Made by a program: the position numbers and the translations under genes. A stretch of 64,000 bases of DNA, from contig NZ_CP036271.1 of the NCBI RefSeq assembly GCF_007745175.1, forward strand, positions 2,495,227 to 2,559,226, given 5' to 3'. The DNA is from Caulifigura coniformis. Its GTDB lineage: Bacteria; Planctomycetota; Planctomycetia; Planctomycetales; Planctomycetaceae. This document shows positions 34,628 to 42,539 of the stretch, piece by piece. Every line of letters starts with the position of its first letter. The first letter of the stretch is position 1. The notes below the pieces were generated by a model. It ran no database searches. It was not told the origin of the DNA and worked only from the letters and a program-made list of their open reading frames with translations.

Positions 34628-34825
34628 TCACTGTATCGAGTGCAACAGTCGAATCCTCTCAACCATCGGTGGGTCCCTCGGCGACAGGTCCCAGGCCCAA
34701 CGGCTATCGAGCAGGACAAGATCGTTCGGCCGATACTCGTACTCGTCCACGACCTCGAGGCGCCCGCCTGCGATCAGCCGACCCGCTTCACCGCGATGCG
34801 ACGCCTCTGCGTGCGGCCCCACGTC
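34628..34825 (-). pseudogene. 3' relic of a GT39-family gene
   Basis: About 65 codons read VGPHAEASHRGEAGRLIAGG, RLEVVDEYEYRPNDLVLLDS, RWAWDLSPRDPPMVERIRLL, then HSIQ and a stop. They align without gaps apart from a short shift to the last residues of the intact gene at 36116-37933 (VGPHADQAEADRLIAAGRLE and so on). An in-frame stop lies four codons before the homology begins, right after the end of the TlpA-like gene, so no start or membrane domain remains. It is best read as the leftover of a duplicated or replaced glycosyltransferase gene. Confidence 0.8.
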
Positions 34826-34836
34826 ACGCCCTCAAC

Positions 34837-35919
34837 TCAAGGAGCCGGCTCGGTCAGGAGTTCTTCGATGTGCTTCCGCATCTGGGCTTCGCCCGTCTGC
34901 CCCTGCCAGTTCAGCTCGCCCGTCCAGTAGAAGCGGAGCCGTCCGGCCTTGTCGACGAGGTACACGCTTGGCCACATCGAGTTGCCCCACGCATCCCAGT
35001 TCTTCGAGTCCACGTCGATGAGCACCGGGAACTCGAACTTCTCCTCGGCCGCCTTCCTCTTCACAGCCTCGATGTCCCGTTCGGCCTTGGTCTCGGGAGT
35101 GTGAATCCCGACGATCACCAGATCCTGCCCCCGGTATCGCGACTGCCAGTCGAGGTAGGCGGGGTAGTTGTGAATGCAGTTGATGCACCCGAACGCATAG
35201 AAATGGACGGCCACGACCTTGCCGCGGAGGCTGCTGGAGGCGAGTCCCTCACTGTTGGCCCACTGGCCTGAGTCGATGAGGTCAGGGACCCGGAAGGCGG
35301 GCCGGCCCAGGCGGGTCACATCGAAGGCCTCCCCCAGCATCCTCGTCCAGCCGTCGCGCTGGGCCTGGGTCAGGCGGTCGAGCACCTTCCGCTGCTCGCC
35401 GATCTTGAGCGTTCGCAGCCGGCCCTCAAGCTGCTTTTGCGGCGTCTTCTCCTCTTTGGCCTTGGCCGCCGCGCGCTGCAGGCTCTCCCGGGTTTCCGAA
35501 ACAATGGCCCGGATCTTCTCCTTCTGGCTGTCGGTCAGCTTGAGGACCGGCTCCATCTCCGGCTGCAGAAACGAGTCGGTCCCCAGCCGGCGCAGTTCGA
35601 CTTCCCGCAGCCGTGTCTCCTGACGCTCGTCGAGAACCTCTTTCAGCTCCTCCCGTGCTTCGGCCACCAGGGCCGCGAACGTCGGCCGGCTGACCTCCGG
35701 CTTCTGGTTGCGCAGCGGGAAGAACCGCAGGTCCCAGCCATCGCGCATCGTCGTGAATCGTGACTGCTGCTCGGCCGAGAGCTTGAGTTCCTCGACGACC
35801 GCCGGCTCGTGCAGCAGCACCCAGAAGGCCTCGATGCGCGGATCGGGCTCGTCGGAGAAAACGGGACCAGCGAGAGCGACCAGCAGAACAGCCGCGAAAG
35901 TGCAGCAGGGCAGTCTCAT
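34837..35919 (-). CDS. Exported TlpA-like thioredoxin-fold protein with helical N-domain
   Basis: The 360-residue product has a signal peptide (LPCCTFAAVLLVALAGPVFS, then DEPD). The first 210 residues are charged and helical, with repeated ELKLSAEQQ / LKLTDSQKEKI / RLTQAQRDGW patterns common in planctomycete exported proteins. The C-terminal part is a TlpA-like thioredoxin fold with Cys245-x-x-Cys248 in FYAFGCINCIHNYPAYLDW and VYLVDKAGRLRFYWTG. It probably acts in periplasmic thiol redox or reduction of cofactors. GGAAGG precedes the ATG. It lies between the GT39 gene and its 3' relic. Confidence 0.85.
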   Translation of the reverse strand: MRLPCCTFAAVLLVALAGPVFSDEPDPRIEAFWVLLHEPAVVEELKLSAEQQSRFTTMRDGWDLRFFPLRNQKPEVSRPTFAALVAEAREELKEVLDERQETRLREVELRRLGTDSFLQPEMEPVLKLTDSQKEKIRAIVSETRESLQRAAAKAKEEKTPQKQLEGRLRTLKIGEQRKVLDRLTQAQRDGWTRMLGEAFDVTRLGRPAFRVPDLIDSGQWANSEGLASSSLRGKVVAVHFYAFGCINCIHNYPAYLDWQSRYRGQDLVIVGIHTPETKAERDIEAVKRKAAEEKFEFPVLIDVDSKNWDAWGNSMWPSVYLVDKAGRLRFYWTGELNWQGQTGEAQMRKHIEELLTEPAP

Positions 35920-36115
35920 GAATCGCCTTCCGGAACCAGAGCTACAACCCGCGACCAGGCCGGGCACGACCAGGCCGCCGCAAGCGACGTCGCCCTTCAC
36001 GGTATCCGAGAGCATGATGAATGGAACAGGGTCCCGCGGCGTTGAGCCCCGACTGGGCGACGCACCGCCGCCGACTGGCCCCCGTTCCGATGGGTGCCTT
36101 GTCTCCTGTTCAGCC

Positions 36116-37933
36116 TCAATCCCGTTTCACGTGCAACAGCCTGACCCGCTCGACGACCGGCTTGTCGGTCGTCGGCAGTTCCCACGCCGGGCGGCTGTCG
36201 AGCAGGACCAGATCACTGGGCCGGTAATCGAACTCGGCGACGACCTCCAGCCGGCCCGCCGCGATGAGCCGGTCGGCTTCGGCCTGGTCCGCATGCGGAC
36301 CGACGACGACATACAGCGGCACCTCGGTCTGGTTCGGCCCCACCCGGGTCATGTCGAAATCGGCGGCCGCGAGCGTCAGGTATCCGACCGGGCTGTCGCG
36401 CTGCCCCGCCGCGAGGTGGAAGTACAGGCCGGGCTCGGCGAGGACATAGAGCGCGCACCGGACGCCTTCGACCTCGCGGGGCAGGGATTCAGTCCGTAAG
36501 CGGGCCACGATTTCTGCGGACACCGACTGCAGCCCACTTCGATTCTCCCACGCCGGGTAGGGGCCCCGGACCGATCCTGTGAACGCCGCGTAGGCTCCCA
36601 CCATGACGACGAACGCCGCGAAGAAGACTCCCAGTCTCTTCCAGCGACCTTGCGGTGGCGCCGGATCAGGGGACGGGCCGTTCAGCGTCGAGGCGTTCCA
36701 GTCGGCCGGAAGGAGCCATGTCGCCATCAGGCAGGCGAGCCCGAGAATCACACCGAAGATCCACGTCAGGCCAAGCCGCGGGTAGGGCGTGTACAACGGC
36801 ACGGCGACAGTCAGTCCGATCAGCCAGGCCGCCGCCAGCCAGAGGCTCAGCTCGCGCAGGCGTGATCGCGCCGTCACGTTCGCAGAGACCGGGTCTCCCT
36901 CCGCTCGCCCATCGCTTCGCGCCTCTGCCGACAACCGACGCCACTCAAACGCGATCAACTGGCTGGAAAGGATGACCGTCGCGAAGAGCAGGGCGGGAAA
37001 CGGGGAGAGCTTGGTCAGCAGGCGGTTGTCGTGGGCGAGAGCGGCCACCTGCCGCACAGCGTTCGGCCACCACTGCCCCAGTCCCGTGAAGTACCCCGCA
37101 TGGTTCTTCGCCACGGCCGAATAGCCGCCGTACTTCTGCAACTCCCACAGCCACGGCGCCCAGAGCAGAAACGCGATGCCCGCGGTGAGCCCCCACCGAC
37201 CCAGGCACACGCCGGCAGCGCCGAACACCGTCCCCGATTTCGGCGCGTCGGCGAGCGGCGGGCCTGAGCCCGCTGATGACTTCACGCGTTTTTTGGACCG
37301 CGATGGTGACGGCTGAGGATCAGGGGGCTGACGCCCGCTCGCCACTATCGCGCCCGCGCCCCCGAACACGATCCACCCCGCCGTCCCCGCCCCGGTGATC
37401 GCCAGCGTGAGCCAGCCGTTGTACTTGGTCCACCACGCCAGGGACGCCAGCACCCCGGCCGCGACGATGTTCCCGGCCCCTCCCGACTGGACCGCTCGCC
37501 ACCCCGCCCACACCCCCGCGGTCATCCACAACCCGAGCATCGCGTCCGTCAGCGCCGCACGGCTGTACGCGATGTGGAACTCGTTGAAGGCTAACAGCAC
37601 CATCGCCGCCATCGCCGCGGGTGGCCCCCACCACGCGCGAACCATCCCCCAGACCACCAGCAACGTCAGCGACCCGCTGACGACATTCACCCACATCACC
37701 CCCTGCGGCCCGCCGAAAATCGCCGCCCACTCCAGGCAGAACGGCAACAGCGGCGGGGCATACAGATGCTGGAACGGGTACCGCCCGTCCGGCGTGTAAA
37801 GGTTCGACGCGTACACTCCCTCGTCGAAATGTTCGACCGCCATCCGCGCGGGAACCGCCGCGCGCAGTCCGAAGCCGGCCGCGAAGACGGCGACGACGAG
37901 AGCAATTTCGAGACGGGTCGGGCGCGGGCTCAT
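36116..37933 (-). CDS. GT39/ArnT-like membrane glycosyltransferase
   Basis: The 605-residue protein has about 10-11 membrane helices. FDEGVYASNLYTPDGRYPFQHLY, with the acidic pair in the first external loop, is typical of PMT/ArnT-type enzymes that use polyprenyl-phosphate sugars. AFNEFHIAYSRAALTDAMLGLW follows in the third or fourth helix region. A Pro/Ser/Lys-rich loop interrupts the middle. A soluble C-terminal domain of about 130 residues ends in VVERVRLLHVKRD. Acceptor unknown; lipid or surface glycan is likely. A homologous 3' end fragment lies at 34628-34825. Start is ATG 37933. Confidence 0.86.
   Translation of the reverse strand: MSPRPTRLEIALVVAVFAAGFGLRAAVPARMAVEHFDEGVYASNLYTPDGRYPFQHLYAPPLLPFCLEWAAIFGGPQGVMWVNVVSGSLTLLVVWGMVRAWWGPPAAMAAMVLLAFNEFHIAYSRAALTDAMLGLWMTAGVWAGWRAVQSGGAGNIVAAGVLASLAWWTKYNGWLTLAITGAGTAGWIVFGGAGAIVASGRQPPDPQPSPSRSKKRVKSSAGSGPPLADAPKSGTVFGAAGVCLGRWGLTAGIAFLLWAPWLWELQKYGGYSAVAKNHAGYFTGLGQWWPNAVRQVAALAHDNRLLTKLSPFPALLFATVILSSQLIAFEWRRLSAEARSDGRAEGDPVSANVTARSRLRELSLWLAAAWLIGLTVAVPLYTPYPRLGLTWIFGVILGLACLMATWLLPADWNASTLNGPSPDPAPPQGRWKRLGVFFAAFVVMVGAYAAFTGSVRGPYPAWENRSGLQSVSAEIVARLRTESLPREVEGVRCALYVLAEPGLYFHLAAGQRDSPVGYLTLAAADFDMTRVGPNQTEVPLYVVVGPHADQAEADRLIAAGRLEVVAEFDYRPSDLVLLDSRPAWELPTTDKPVVERVRLLHVKRD
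36124..36137. promoter_or_regulatory. ParB-site-like 14-mer D within the 3' end of the GT39 gene
   Basis: GTTTCACGTGCAAC occurs within the last codons of the glycosyltransferase gene (encoding LLHVKRD on the minus strand). It is identical to the intergenic copy at 33573-33586. Because this copy is coding, the match could reflect the peptide sequence rather than ParB binding. Confidence 0.4.
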
Positions 37934-38013: not shown

Positions 38014-40677
38014 CTACTTCTGTTCCGGCCACGCGCCCGTCTGAATCGCCCCGCCCCCTCCACTCGGAATGAGCTGGGCGCCAAGTTCGCGAAGCCTGGC
38101 CACCGCCTGCGCATCCGCGGCCATCAGGAGCGCAGTGTCCCAGCCATCGGCCTCGCGACAGGTGGGCGCGATCACCGCCACCGCCCGCCACCGCGGCTCC
38201 GCCGGCCGGCCGGTCAGCGTTGAGAGCAGGTGCTTGTTAGCACCGCTGCCGCCGCGAGGATACACGCCGCTTGTGGAGAGCGCCTGGTCCCGGAGAGTCA
38301 GGCGGGGCGTCGCCCACGCGCCCGCGTCCGGATCCAGCCCCACCTCCCACGCCCCGGACGACCGCAGTTCCCCTCCGATCTCGATGAGGAATTCCTTCAG
38401 GCCCGCCGTCCGCAGCAGGTCATACACCCGGTCGACCGCGTGGCCCTGCAGCAGCGAACCGAGATCGATCTGCACACGAGGATCCCGTTTCTGCAGCGAG
38501 GGGACCATCTCCTCCACGGCCAGTTTCTGCCATCCGATCGACTCGAGCAACGTTCGGATCGTCTCATTCGAAGGCGGCTCGGCCTTTGGCCCCGAAGGAC
38601 CGTTGCCCCACGCATCCACCAACGGACCGACGGTGATGTCGAACGCGCCGCTGGTCGCCTCGCTCAGCTCGAGGCCCTGGGACACCAGCGAGGCGAGTTC
38701 CTTCGAGCACTCGATTTCGAGCGTCGTCTCGCTGCTGTTGAACTGCGACGTTTCCGACCCGGGACGCCAATGGGACAGAGTCGCTTCGATCCGTTCGAGC
38801 TCAGCGGTCACCTGATCCTGAAGCGTCGCCGTCCCCCCCAGCGGATCGCGGATCTTGATCGTCCAGCTCGTCCCGAACGCCCGCCCGGTGAGCGTCGAAG
38901 GACCAGCCACGCGGGGCACGGCGCCGCCGTCGGAGCCTGCCTCCACCGGCCACCACATCCATGCGGCGGCAATCCCCACCGTGGCCATCGCCAGCAGGTC
39001 CCGAACCGACCAGCGGTCGGCCGTGCCGTGTGACCGGACGAACTTCAGCAGCGCCCCCGTCGGGCAGCCGAACCGGCAGTAGGCCTGCGGAACGAAGAGC
39101 GCAGCCACCAGCCCGGCGAGGCCGACCAGCATCGACACGGCGGCCGCGGGGCCGAGAACCCACGCGTCGAATGGCTCGAGCCAGGTGAGGTTGAACTGCG
39201 GTCGAACCAGGGCCAGCACGAACGCAGCGATCAGGAGGAGCCAGGGCAGGAGTCCCAGCGCCCGATTCAGTAGCCGCGGCAGCCGGATGTGCAGCCGCCG
39301 ATTTCGCCCGAGCCATTCCTGGACCGCGCCATGCGGACAGAGTGAGTGACAGTAGACCTGGCGCTTGGCTGACCACGGAACGACCAGCGCCACGGCAACG
39401 AGCGCCACGAGGCCCGGCGCCGTCGACCACGACGCCCCGTTTCTCGACCAGCCGGCAAGCAGGGACATCGAGAGCATGTCACCCAGCCACAGTCCGAAAG
39501 CAGCCACCAGGACGAGCTGCCAGATTTCCCGCACCCGACGCCCTCCCAGCATCGGAACAAACGTGATCGCCAGACCACCAGTCACGATCCCCAGCAGCCC
39601 AAGGTCACGCAGCTTCCAGGTCGCGCCGATGGCCTTGGGCGTCGCCTGTTCGACTTCCGATTGCAGACGACGGCGAACCCCTTCGGCCAGTCCAAAACTT
39701 GTCTGCGTTGCTCCGGACACCCCTTCGATGCCCGAGGTGTTGAAGTCGATGCGAGTCCAGTCGTCGATCGATTTGCCGGCAAGTCCATCGAGGAAACCCT
39801 CGTCATCGCGGACGCGATCGACGTATTCAGGGGTGTCGTAGCTGCTGCGCAGACGCACCGCGGTGACACGCTTGCGCGATGAGTCCACCGCGACGAGCGC
39901 CTCAGTCGGTCCGCTGTATCCCCGGACGGTTTCCGCCGCCGGCGATGTCCGCAGCAGATAGCCCAGCGTGGCGTCTTCTGGCCCCCGCACTTCCACCCAG
40001 CCCGCGCGGCCCGCATCAGACTTCAGGTTCGTGGCGGTCGGAAAAACCTCCTGCGCTTCGGCCAGTGTGATCGAATCCGGAAACCGCAGTGAGGTCGCAT
40101 GCCCCGCCAGCCGTGCTTCGAGCGACTCCGCCATTGCCAGACTGGTCAGCGTCGACCCGCTGACCGCTTCGATGGCAGGCCGCTGGCCACTGGCAGGGTT
40201 CCACCCCCGGAACTGGGTCCAGTAGGTCGAGGCATTCCTCACCTGCTCGACATGCTCGGCCGTGTCGCGACTCCACAGCAGACTGACGCCCGTGATGCCG
40301 CCGTTGGGGTCGAGACCGACGAGCAGGTTGCTTGGACCGGAGTAACCGACGAGATGATCGGACTGGGGGGACGTCGTCAGGACGACTCCCAGTTCTACTC
40401 CAGCCGAATCGAGGACCTTCCAGCCGTTGAGGATCGGCACATGGGGGCCGAGGCGAGCGGCGGTCGGAAACAGTCGCAACGTCTCTTCAAAAGGAATGTC
40501 GCTCGGTTGGTCCCGGCGGTGGTTGCTTTGGGCGATCAGGAATGCCGCCGCTGCGAGGATGAGGGCCCGCGTGACGCGAACCAGCCAGCGAACCACGAGC
40601 GGCAGCGGCTTGAACGGAGCGCGCGGGTCCTTCAGGACTGGCAGCAAAGGGCTGTGATCCGGCGGACCTGCTGACAC
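38014..40677 (-). CDS. Fusion of two FMN-binding domains, NosR-like Fe-S membrane core and ApbE-like domain
   Basis: The 887-residue protein has one early membrane anchor (about 28-50), then two FMN-binding domains with flavinylation motifs SGSTLT (173-178) and SGATQT (321-326), each preceded by an IE-x-V element. About six membrane helices follow, with two Cys-x-x-x-Cys-Pro motifs (YCHSLCPHG, Cys443/Cys447; YCRFGCPTG, Cys534/Cys538), as in the NosR/NapH core. The last 295 residues match ApbE flavin transferase (GTSWTIKI, IDLGSLLQGHAVD, IEIGGEL, ADGWDTALLMA). The ApbE part departs from consensus: Gln for Lys in the KGYAVD-type motif and STLTG for DPxTG. GTG 40677 has AGGAGA upstream; TTG 40704 is an alternative. 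Confidence 0.88.
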   Translation of the reverse strand: MSAGPPDHSPLLPVLKDPRAPFKPLPLVVRWLVRVTRALILAAAAFLIAQSNHRRDQPSDIPFEETLRLFPTAARLGPHVPILNGWKVLDSAGVELGVVLTTSPQSDHLVGYSGPSNLLVGLDPNGGITGVSLLWSRDTAEHVEQVRNASTYWTQFRGWNPASGQRPAIEAVSGSTLTSLAMAESLEARLAGHATSLRFPDSITLAEAQEVFPTATNLKSDAGRAGWVEVRGPEDATLGYLLRTSPAAETVRGYSGPTEALVAVDSSRKRVTAVRLRSSYDTPEYVDRVRDDEGFLDGLAGKSIDDWTRIDFNTSGIEGVSGATQTSFGLAEGVRRRLQSEVEQATPKAIGATWKLRDLGLLGIVTGGLAITFVPMLGGRRVREIWQLVLVAAFGLWLGDMLSMSLLAGWSRNGASWSTAPGLVALVAVALVVPWSAKRQVYCHSLCPHGAVQEWLGRNRRLHIRLPRLLNRALGLLPWLLLIAAFVLALVRPQFNLTWLEPFDAWVLGPAAAVSMLVGLAGLVAALFVPQAYCRFGCPTGALLKFVRSHGTADRWSVRDLLAMATVGIAAAWMWWPVEAGSDGGAVPRVAGPSTLTGRAFGTSWTIKIRDPLGGTATLQDQVTAELERIEATLSHWRPGSETSQFNSSETTLEIECSKELASLVSQGLELSEATSGAFDITVGPLVDAWGNGPSGPKAEPPSNETIRTLLESIGWQKLAVEEMVPSLQKRDPRVQIDLGSLLQGHAVDRVYDLLRTAGLKEFLIEIGGELRSSGAWEVGLDPDAGAWATPRLTLRDQALSTSGVYPRGGSGANKHLLSTLTGRPAEPRWRAVAVIAPTCREADGWDTALLMAADAQAVARLRELGAQLIPSGGGGAIQTGAWPEQK

Positions 40678-40761
40678 GAGACCCGATTTCTCCTGGGCGA
40701 ACAAACGGCTGGCAATTCAGCGTAGTTCGAAGAGGGAGACGATTCACGGCCGTTCAACAAA

Positions 40762-40862: not shown

Positions 40863-42272
40863 TCACTCGTCGCTTTCGGGGCGACGTTCCCGACGCTCAC
40901 TCGGAGCGCCGAATTCCCGGGCGATCGCTTCCCGCAGTTCCTCGGGACTGATCCGGCCGTCACCGTTGCCATCCAGGTCCTTGAACCGTTCCTTCATCCG
41001 GTCCGGAGCTTCGTCCTTCGAAACACTGCCATCCCCATCCCGGTCGAGCCGGGAGAAGATGTCTCGAGGCCGCTCGCCGTCACGGCCAGGTCCCCGTTCC
41101 CCACGCGGCGGGCCTCCTTCCGGCCGACCCTCCGGACGACCTTCAGGACGCGGACGATCACCTTCGCGTGCCCCCTCGGGACGCGGCCGATCGCCGTCGC
41201 GCGGACCTTCCGGACGTCGATCACCGTCGCGCATTCCTTCCGGGCGGGGACGGTCGCCGTCCCGCGGTCCGTCAGGACGCCGGTCACCATCGCGCGGCCC
41301 CTCTGCCCGCCGTTCACCGTCGCGGACCATTTCGCGATCACGGTCGCCCCCTTCACGACGCATCCCGTCCGGTCCGCCGAAGCCCGGCCGGCCAAAGCCC
41401 CGGAACTCCGATCCCCCAAACGGCCCGCCAGCCAGCTCGGCAAAATCGAGTTCGCCGTCTGAGTTCCGGTCGAGTTCTTCGAATCGGTCGGCCAGCCGCG
41501 CGAGCTCCCTGCGATTCAGCTTTCCATTCTCGTCGCGATCAAGGACCCGGATCAGCGGGCTCATCGGCCGTCCCTCGCCGAAGCGACCGAATCCCCGTGC
41601 TTCCGGGCGGTCCCCACGTTCCATGCGGTCCCCTTCCGGAGGTCGAGGCGGGCCATCCGGACGTCCGGGGCCATCTCCTCGGCCCGGTCCCGGTCCGCGA
41701 TCGCCGTCTTCCCGGGCCATCTCACGTCCTTCAGGACGCGGGCGGTCGCCCGCCCCTTCCGGCCGTCGACCGTCGCGGCCCCCCGGCGGACCGTACTTCG
41801 CCATCACTTTCTCGAATTCCTCACGCGTCAATTCGCTCTTCCCCGAGGCAGTGAACACCAGTTCAAGTCGCTCCTGCATTTCAGCCGGCGCCTGTTCCGG
41901 GATCTCCTGCTTCGTGAACTTGCCGTCCTTGTCCCGGTCGATCCGTTCGAACATCTGGCCCGGCGAAAACATCGGGCGATCGCTGCCAAACCGCCCGCGG
42001 GGAGCCTCGACCGGCTTGTCCTCATGCGTCATTGCGGCGACGAACTCTTCGCGGCTCAACTTGTGGTCGTCGTTCTTGTCCCCAACGCGGACCAGCCGCT
42101 CGTAAAACCGCTTGCGATCTTCGCCGATCTCGTCGTCGACGAGCGTCCCGTCGCTGTTCTTGTCGAGCGTTTCAAAGAGCTTCGCGGGCTCCTGGACCGG
42201 CTCGTCGCTCTTCACGGGACCGATCCACGTCAGCGCCGACGCGCAGACCATCCCGAATGCCATTCGTTTCAT
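40863..42272 (-). CDS. Secreted EF-hand protein with Asp/Arg/Pro-rich repeats
   Basis: The 469-residue product has a short signal peptide (MAFGMVCASALTWIGPVKS). Seven canonical calcium-binding loops are visible: DKNSDGTLVDDE, DKNDDHKLSREE, DRDKDGKFTKQE, DRDENGKLNRRE, DRNSDGELDFAE, DRDGDGSVSKDE and DGNGDGRISPEE; an eighth (TASGKSELTREE) lacks key acidic residues. Between them lie low-complexity stretches built from PRDGDRRPEG units. Such proteins are common in planctomycetes and are thought to bind calcium outside the cell. Two hairpins lie downstream. The gene is divergent from the Pro-rich protein gene across a 267-base gap. Confidence 0.85.
   Translation of the reverse strand: MKRMAFGMVCASALTWIGPVKSDEPVQEPAKLFETLDKNSDGTLVDDEIGEDRKRFYERLVRVGDKNDDHKLSREEFVAAMTHEDKPVEAPRGRFGSDRPMFSPGQMFERIDRDKDGKFTKQEIPEQAPAEMQERLELVFTASGKSELTREEFEKVMAKYGPPGGRDGRRPEGAGDRPRPEGREMAREDGDRGPGPGRGDGPGRPDGPPRPPEGDRMERGDRPEARGFGRFGEGRPMSPLIRVLDRDENGKLNRRELARLADRFEELDRNSDGELDFAELAGGPFGGSEFRGFGRPGFGGPDGMRREGGDRDREMVRDGERRAEGPRDGDRRPDGPRDGDRPRPEGMRDGDRRPEGPRDGDRPRPEGAREGDRPRPEGRPEGRPEGGPPRGERGPGRDGERPRDIFSRLDRDGDGSVSKDEAPDRMKERFKDLDGNGDGRISPEELREAIAREFGAPSERRERRPESDE
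41094..41345 (-). repeat. Coding tandem repeats of a PRDGDRRPEG unit
   Basis: Within the EF-hand gene this segment encodes repeated 9-12-residue units such as RPEGMRDGDR, RPEGPRDGDR and RPEGAREGDR. The DNA repeats with a period near 30-33 bases. The regular frame-keeping period and amino-acid similarity show it is a coding repeat prone to copy-number change. Confidence 0.8.
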
Positions 42273-42539
42273 GAGCTTGCTCACCGAGGGGGTGTCACTT
42301 GGAACACGACATGAAACCCCGGGCGCGTGACGGCGGTATCGGACCATTTTCAAAAGCTGTTCGATTCTGCAACGGTCGGCCTCGCCTCCGATCCACTGGA
42401 CCGGGTGACCAAATCCGCCCTTTTCCGGGTTTCTCCGATCAGATAGCTTCCGCGCAAATTGCCCGGGAGCCGCGGACGGATCGCGCGATTCCCGGAGGTG
42501 GCCAAGGACTGCAATGTCGCTCAGGGAAGGGCGCTGCGG

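What the first reader, a model, noticed from the sequence alone, without database searches (positions are those of the whole stretch)
38014..40677. Single-chain flavinylated electron-transfer protein with its own ApbE-like domain
Seen: two SGxT-type flavinylation motifs, two CysX3CysPro membrane motifs and a C-terminal ApbE-like domain in one frame. Known: ApbE attaches FMN to a Thr in such motifs, and NosR/NapH-type cores pass electrons across membranes. Inference: the protein may flavinylate itself and link quinol or cytoplasmic electrons to an exported acceptor, possibly the thioredoxin-fold or haem-motif proteins encoded nearby. The ApbE domain has substitutions (Gln for Lys in the KGYAVD-type motif, STLTG for DPxTG), so it may be inactive or altered.
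Basis: partly seen in the sequence, partly recalled or inferred. Interest (0 to 1): 0.8.

Follow-up and report, generated by a model that had tools for sequence, protein, structure and literature searches.

The report
Self-flavinylating membrane electron conduit fusion
This planctomycete gene encodes one predicted membrane protein that joins two domains predicted to carry FMN to the kind of enzyme domain that attaches FMN, so it likely flavinylates itself, and it is inherited together with an enzyme, predicted to be secreted and to bind FAD, that is its likely electron partner.

Summary
Confirmed: window 38014-40677, minus strand, encodes one 887-aa protein: TM1, two FMN_bind domains (SGST176, SGAT324), six more predicted TM helices with two CX3CP motifs, and a C-terminal ApbE domain whose predicted fold matches V. 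cholerae ApbE. It is a family: the 120 best database hits all carry the same three Pfam families in one chain (Planctomycetota, Verrucomicrobiota). Catalytic Ser/His/Asp are kept in 118-119 of 120 rows; the 'suspicious' Gln is typical (118/120), so inactivity is not supported. No other FMN_bind domain was found in the genome. The fusion label changes five times on a core tree (at least four forced). The nearby genes are not the partner; a predicted-secreted FAD_oxidored-Golvesin_C enzyme probably is. It lies directly upstream in 30 of 41 testable fused loci, accompanies the core in 50 of 51 genomes (6 of 98 without a strong core), and its distances mirror the core's (Mantel r 0.85); here it lies 1.88 Mb away. 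Best model: a PceC/NapH-like conduit that flavinylates itself and carries electrons between this enzyme and quinone. FMN attachment, direction and substrate are untested. New variant of a known kind.

The parts
38014..40677 (-). whole gene, 887 aa fusion protein (GTG start; stop included)
   Evidence: relatives with the same architecture
40689..40694 (-). AGGAGA, likely ribosome-binding site for the GTG start at 40677
   Evidence: read from sequence; inference
40516..40599 (-). predicted TM helix 1 (residues 27-54), N-terminus predicted inside
   Evidence: AF2 helix; charge count
40114..40347 (-). FMN_bind domain 1 (residues 111-188)
   Evidence: PF04205 over cut-off, (35.2 bits)
40150..40161 (-). 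flavinylation motif 1, S173-G-S-T176; predicted FMN acceptor Thr176
   Evidence: G174, S175, T176 and T178 in 120/120 rows; same variant in PceC
39664..39921 (-). FMN_bind domain 2 (residues 253-338)
   Evidence: PF04205 over cut-off, (37.8 bits)
39706..39717 (-). flavinylation motif 2, S321-G-A-T324; predicted FMN acceptor Thr324
   Evidence: S321, G322 and T324 in 120/120 rows, A323 in 119
38953..39612 (-). membrane core, predicted TM helices 2-7 (residues 356-575)
   Evidence: AF2 helices 356-373, 380-398, 421-437, 468-491, 509-528, 558-575; Fer4_5
39334..39351 (-). CX3CP motif 1 (C443, C447), predicted cytoplasmic side
   Evidence: both Cys 120/120; 6 K+R in this loop
39061..39078 (-). CX3CP motif 2 (C534, C538), predicted cytoplasmic side
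   Evidence: both Cys 120/120; 4 K+R in this loop
38086..38877 (-). ApbE (FAD:protein FMN transferase) domain, residues 601-864; S803, H816 and D844 match the catalytic Ser/His/Asp, T848 a metal-ligand position
   Evidence: residue roles from PMC12052999 and PMC4767422, mapped by eye on motif and spacing

Best explanation
The gene encodes a single-chain, predicted NapH/PceC-like membrane protein whose C-terminal ApbE domain likely attaches FMN to Thr176 and Thr324 of its own two FMN_bind domains, making a flavin conduit that would pass electrons between a predicted-secreted FAD oxidoreductase and the membrane quinone pool. Shown here: the fused architecture, its conservation, retained catalytic residues, no other FMN_bind domain in the genome search, a family tree on which fusion changes several times, and co-inheritance with one FAD_oxidored-Golvesin_C protein. 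Predicted: seven TM helices placing both FMN_bind domains and the ApbE domain outside and both CX3CP motifs inside; ApbE would act after export, in cis or between neighbouring copies, since a low-confidence linker (580-590) joins it to the core. Inferred: the oxidoreductase FAD is one terminus and the quinone pool the other. I favour flow from the oxidoreductase (oxidising a carbohydrate-like substrate; beta-sandwich modules at both ends) through the FMNs and the cysteine-motif core to quinone, about 55:45 over the reverse.
For: Fusion family: 120 of 120 listed relatives (of 360) carry PF04205+PF12801+PF02424 in one chain (includes the window's own protein). Conservation over 120 aligned rows: T176 120, T324 120, four Cys 120 each, S803 118, H816 119, D844 119, T848 117 (+2 Ser), Q744 118. 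ApbE fold; FMN part matches NqrC/RnfG weakly. Own genome: FMN_bind found only in this protein, no NqrB/RnfD match (control rings in 4 genomes), four ApbE. Fusion label: 5 changes on a 125-row core tree, at least 4 forced by starred branches; the fused ApbE of G028 groups with apbE genes beside split cores, and G126 has ox, core, apbE in that order (L141). Partner: ox directly upstream on the same strand in 30 of 41 fused named loci with at least 700 bp upstream (45 fused in all) and 15 of 35 split; adjacent in 29 of 51 core-bearing genomes, gaps 31-870 bp; ox match at E<=1e-80 in 50 of 51 strong-core genomes versus 6 of 98, Fisher p 1.2e-31, 4 of those 6 with a weak core match. Controls with two neighbour genes show no positive association (thioredoxin 5/51 v 24/98, glycosyltransferase 36/51 v 68/98). 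Four genera with genomes at least 96% complete have both or neither (G000/G001, G088+G110/G024, G075/G102, G029/G092). The own unlinked ox falls in the fused clade's ox group (99*), which spans two phyla; Mantel r 0.85, 0 of 2000 permutations, n 68.
Against: No experiment: FMN attachment, self-modification, iron-sulfur content, quinone binding and electron flow are all untested. The acceptor-side lysine essential in Shewanella NqrC (K207, PMC4767422) has no evident counterpart in domain 1 and seems to be Asp311 in domain 2 (weak alignment; that the aligned RnfG Lys is the K207 equivalent is my recall). Both sites have E for D, and site 1 also S for A, against the D-x-x-[S/T]-G-A-[S/T] motif, though PceC and A. 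woodii RnfG also have TGST. The genome has three other ApbE genes that could act in trans, and 47 of 51 core-bearing genomes show no ApbE in the core's frame. Here the ox gene is 1.88 Mb away. G070 has a split core with a fused-type ox; G003 and G035 have ox-like genes (43% identical) without a core match; G085 (62% complete) has core without ox; three of the 50 ox matches (G012, G020, G076) are fragments. The co-occurrence test ignores shared ancestry apart from the genus contrasts. The charge pattern is not clean: the ends of the outside loop 55-355 hold 6 K+R and 6 D+E. Electron direction and substrate rest on analogy only.
Confidence: 0.6

Rival explanations
1. Same protein and partner, but electrons run outward: quinol reduces the core and FMNs, and the secreted FAD enzyme is a reductase.
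For: Known systems of this architecture (PceC/RdhC, NosR, NapH) are thought to feed reductases outside the membrane from quinol (PMC5928378; PMC8238504). The ox fold list includes flavocytochrome c3 and fumarate reductase.
Against: PMC8238504 also lists alcohol-oxidase clusters with NapH-like cores. Beta-sandwich modules at both ends of the ox (Golvesin_C over cut-off; CBM_35-like below cut-off) suit a carbohydrate oxidase better. Quinol to a flavin near -184 mV (measured in a different protein, PMC10339131) would be uphill (recalled energetics).
Confidence: 0.35
2. The fused ApbE domain does not serve its own chain: the FMN_bind domains are flavinylated by stand-alone ApbE, and the fused domain acts on other proteins or is redundant.
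For: Three other ApbE genes in the genome; few split cores have an apbE in the fetched stretch (6 of 47), so trans flavinylation must be common in the family.
Against: No other FMN_bind or NqrB-type substrate found in the genome; one other ApbE is already fused to a DUF2271 domain; fusion to the same core appears several times on the tree.
Confidence: 0.2
3. The ApbE domain is catalytically dead or changed in specificity.
For: STLTG for DPxTG and Gln for Lys.
Against: Gln is family-typical (118/120) and Ser at the D position too (91/120); Ser803, His816, Asp844, Thr848 are nearly invariant; E. coli wild type has Glu at the Gln position.
Confidence: 0.08
4. The core and the ox are only co-inherited (linked genes moved together) and do not exchange electrons.
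For: They are adjacent in many genomes, so co-transfer alone could give matching trees.
Against: The association holds where the genes are unlinked (G000, G026, G028, G004, G005 and others), and both are absent together in some close relatives.
Confidence: 0.12

Closest known systems
NapH-like flavinylated membrane systems (PMC8238504, sections 8-9 read)
   Same: N-terminal extracytosolic FMN_bind domain(s) on a Fer4_5 (PF12801) membrane protein, linked to an ApbE and an extracytosolic oxidoreductase
   Different: ApbE is part of the same chain; two FMN_bind domains; the likely partner is an FAD_oxidored-Golvesin_C enzyme, not named in the sections and passages seen
PceC/RdhC (PMC5928378, passages and section 23 read)
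   Same: FMN domain between TM1 and TM2 facing out, two CX3CP motifs, no C-terminal iron-sulfur domain, [S/T]G[A/S]TX[S/T] acceptor motif
   Different: six predicted TM and one FMN domain in PceC against seven predicted TM, two FMN domains and ApbE here; a dehalogenase partner was searched for without result, but the control did not ring
NosR
   Same: FMN domain plus CX3CP membrane core (NCBIfam NosR model hits 425-545)
   Different: 39.5 bits against a cut-off of 1000; no C-terminal iron-sulfur domain (six Cys in all)
Kinetoplastid fumarate reductase with fused ApbE (PMC12052999, passages)
   Same: a flavinyl transferase fused to its own flavinylation target
   Different: eukaryotic glycosomal enzyme with ApbE at the N-terminus; here a bacterial predicted membrane conduit with ApbE at the C-terminus

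Membership tests
ApbE / FAD:protein FMN transferase (PF02424) | curated profile score | tested here: met
   208.3 bits against 25.6
ApbE / FAD:protein FMN transferase (PF02424) | fold of solved ApbE | tested here: met
   predicted model against 6nxj: E 3.5e-20, TM-score on target 0.84
ApbE / FAD:protein FMN transferase (PF02424) | Ser-His-Asp triad and metal-ligand Thr | tested here: met
   S803, H816, D844, T848 by alignment to E. coli ApbE (His to Asp spacing 28 as in V. cholerae H257-D285) and in 118/119/119/117 of 120 rows; roles
ApbE / FAD:protein FMN transferase (PF02424) | FMN transferase activity | not testable with these tools
   needs protein
FMN_bind (PF04205) | curated score and acceptor Thr motif, both copies | tested here: met
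   35.2 and 37.8 bits, both over the cut-off of 22; T176 and T324 120/120
FMN_bind (PF04205) | acceptor-side Lys as in NqrC K207 | tested here: inconclusive
   Asp311 in domain 2 by a weak alignment; none evident in domain 1
RdhC/PceC | FMN motif plus two CX3CP motifs | tested here: met
   definition
RdhC/PceC | six TM helices | tested here: not met
   seven predicted; both numbers are predictions
RdhC/PceC | reductive dehalogenase in the genome | tested here: inconclusive
   no PF13486 match, but the control genomes did not ring either
NosR (NF046105) | curated score | tested here: not met
   39.5 bits against 1000
NosR (NF046105) | C-terminal iron-sulfur domain | tested here: not met
   Cys only at 443, 447, 534, 538, 657, 840
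NapH (TIGR02163) | curated score | tested here: not met
   22.4 bits against 213.05
NapH-like flavinylated system as defined in PMC8238504 | PF12801 membrane protein in a flavinylation-associated gene cluster | tested here: met
   Fer4_5, FMN_bind and ApbE in one gene; definition

The most novel reading that the evidence does not exclude
A PVC-superphylum respiratory module: a secreted, carbohydrate-binding FAD dehydrogenase feeds quinone through a haem-free chain of covalent FMNs in a membrane protein that installs its own cofactors. Fusion of the maturase to its substrate was selected several times, so the conduit needs no separate maturation gene.
Probability: 0.33. Interest if true: 0.75.

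Novelty: new variant of a known kind. Interest (0 to 1): 0.62.

Why it matters
If true it is a bacterial electron-transfer protein that carries its own cofactor-attaching enzyme, a good single-chain system for studying flavinylation in cis and for making self-maturing flavoproteins. It also gives one uncharacterised branch of NapH-like cores, found here in many Planctomycetota and Verrucomicrobiota, a concrete candidate partner, which makes its role testable in cultured planctomycetes.

Tried and rejected
Frameshift or misassembly: rejected by the other fused relatives (119 of the 120 listed rows are not the window's own). Degenerate ApbE: rejected on family conservation. Local neighbours as partners: the thioredoxin-fold protein (34837-36015) has strong matches in 5 of 51 core genomes against 24 of 98 others (sets counted by hand); the glycosyltransferase (36116-37930) in 36 of 51 against 68 of 98, although a homologue also lies beside the core in G004; the neighbours tested at fused loci G026 and G028 are unrelated metabolic genes. 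Third conserved gene in the operon: over 46 hand-picked loci the core family recurs in 44 and the ox in 30, the next family in 6. Conserved context of unlinked ox genes: in 14 loci the next most common family is in 4. Substrate of the ox from structure: model pLDDT 84.1; matches are to the general FAD Rossmann fold and, for the end domains, to xanthan lyase, so no substrate was named. Sequence search of the membrane core alone against solved structures: nothing at E<=5. Own-genome dehalogenase and nos_propeller searches gave nothing, but the controls did not ring either, so inconclusive. The K/R regex counts were too crude to use.

Limits of the samples: one search scored only the 7,996 candidates sharing most words and listed 120 of 360. 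One search kept 80 of 193 loci and its patterns came from the fused alignment, so 45 fused to 35 split is not a frequency. One search did not list 74 genomes without a match by name.

Literature: searches over the open-licence PMC library turned up no description of this bacterial fusion or of this ox partner in what I saw of their hits. Supplementary tables of PMC8238504, which may list such clusters, could not be opened.

Full report
What is there. The finding lies on the minus strand. From GTG 40677 (AGGAGA 11 nt upstream) to the stop at 38014 runs one 887-residue frame. Pfam gives two FMN_bind stretches, two Fer4_5 stretches and one ApbE domain, each family over its cut-off. AlphaFold2 on 120 aligned rows gives a confident model (mean pLDDT 90.4, pTM 0.68) with seven helices of TM length and a low-confidence stretch at 580-590 before the ApbE domain. 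Foldseek places the ApbE domain on V. cholerae, Salmonella and E. coli ApbE (E 3.5e-20 to 2e-17, TM-score on target 0.77-0.85) and, weakly (E about 0.01), the FMN part on NqrC and RnfG. Loop charges favour the two CX3CP loops inside (6 and 4 Lys+Arg, against 1 and 1 in the two short outside loops), hence FMN domains and ApbE outside; the ends of the long outside loop 55-355 hold 6 Lys+Arg and 6 Asp+Glu and do not help. That topology is a prediction.

It is a family, not an oddity. A search of 5.8 billion proteins gave 360 relatives at E<=1e-3 among 7,996 scored candidates; the 120 listed all carry the three Pfam families in one chain (one is the window's own protein). In an alignment of 120 rows (window protein plus 119 others) the acceptor Thr of both motifs and all four core Cys are invariant, and the residues matching the ApbE catalytic Ser/His/Asp are kept in 118, 119 and 119 rows. 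E. coli wild-type enzyme has Glu at the Gln position. At site 1 the letters G-S-T are invariant; PceC, reported to carry FMN on Thr168, also has TGST (I read this from the mutagenic primer in PMC5928378), as does A. woodii RnfG. A point against: the lysine essential in NqrC is not evident in either domain.

Why self-flavinylation. The genome search found FMN_bind domains only in this protein and no NqrB/RnfD, while four ApbE domains exist: this one, two with no other Pfam domain, and one fused to DUF2271. Among 149 genomes (own plus 148 relatives), 51 have a strong core match, E below 1e-40, and four a weak one; in 4 of these 51, the window's genome included, core and ApbE share a frame. Among 80 named loci kept out of 193, 45 are fused and 35 split (L214 counted as fused although its frame is broken; the sample leans to fused). 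On a 125-row FastTree of the core the fused label needs five changes, at least four forced by starred branches; these supports are not bootstraps, the program warned of long branches, and some changes could be losses. In the clade with G028, relatives have apbE directly downstream of the split core (L052, L130, L141, L153) and the ApbE domains group accordingly, which looks like fusion of neighbouring genes. Repeated fusion of the maturase to the same protein is the best indirect evidence that this protein is its substrate.

The partner. Around split and fused cores one gene recurs: a protein of about 740-810 aa with a signal-like N-terminus (by eye), an FAD_oxidored domain and a Golvesin_C domain (three copies scanned), here called ox. 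It is directly upstream on the same strand in 30 of the 41 fused named loci with at least 700 bp upstream sequence, and in 15 of 35 split loci, and adjacent to the core in 29 of 51 core-bearing genomes. Over the 149 genomes an ox match at E<=1e-80 is present in 50 of 51 strong-core genomes and 6 of 98 others (Fisher 1.2e-31). The one miss (G085) is 62% complete; four of the six extras (G045, G123, G135, G141) have a weak core match; G003 and G035 are true exceptions; in G012, G020 and G076 the ox match is a fragment. Two window neighbours used as controls show no positive association. Relatives are not independent, but in four genera, with lacking genomes 96-99% complete, both genes are present or absent together. 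In the window's genome the ox is 1.88 Mb away (G000:C1:649784-652105). Its sequence nevertheless falls inside the ox group of the fused clade, with planctomycete and verrucomicrobial members, rather than with the ox of most same-family split genomes; ox and core distances correlate at 0.85 (0 of 2000 permutations, 68 pairs: named loci with a long ox plus hand-picked relatives). One discordant case is G070.

Mechanism and direction. By analogy with PceC, NosR and NapH the core would link the quinone pool to the outside through the CX3CP region and the FMNs. The ox model (pLDDT 84.1) is an FAD Rossmann protein with beta sandwiches like the end of xanthan lyase, and the own copy has a below-cut-off CBM_35 match. 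I therefore lean to oxidation of a carbohydrate-like substrate with electrons passed inward, but only at about 55:45.

Relation to known systems. It fits the broad NapH-like flavinylated systems described in PMC8238504 (sections 8 and 9 read). It fails NosR and NapH model cut-offs and lacks NosR's C-terminal clusters. A maturase fused to its target is known from kinetoplastid fumarate reductase (PMC12052999). I found no report of this bacterial fusion or of this ox partner in the searches listed under Tried and rejected. Papers seen: PMC8238504 (sections 8, 9 and passages), PMC12052999 (section 7 and passages), PMC4767422 (section 20 and passages), PMC5928378 (section 23 and passages), PMC10339131 (passages), PMC11334425 (one passage, in its reference list); all others in listings only.

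Noticed in passing
L058:7684-9246 (own genome, G000:C1:2150683-2152245): A second ApbE fusion in the same genome: ApbE joined to DUF2271, a domain tied to flavinylation in PMC8238504; possibly another self-contained maturase-substrate pair.
   Followed up: partly
window 34637-34822, minus strand: A 59-residue copy (69% identical) of the C-terminal end of the glycosyltransferase at 36116-37930, lying on the far side of the thioredoxin-fold gene 34837-36015; looks like a duplication or insertion scar.
   Followed up: no
G000:C1:646467-649568 (L122:4968-8069): The own-genome ox gene is followed on the same strand by a 1033-aa DUF7133 plus cytochrome c protein.
   Followed up: partly
window 40863-42353, minus strand: A protein rich in Arg, Gly, Pro and Asp with many EF-hand matches directly upstream of the fusion gene.
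   Followed up: no
L177, L189, L197, L222, L226, L235: Contigs titled Akkermansia muciniphila carry these genes; the isolate names look environmental, so the record titles may be mislabelled MAGs.
   Followed up: no
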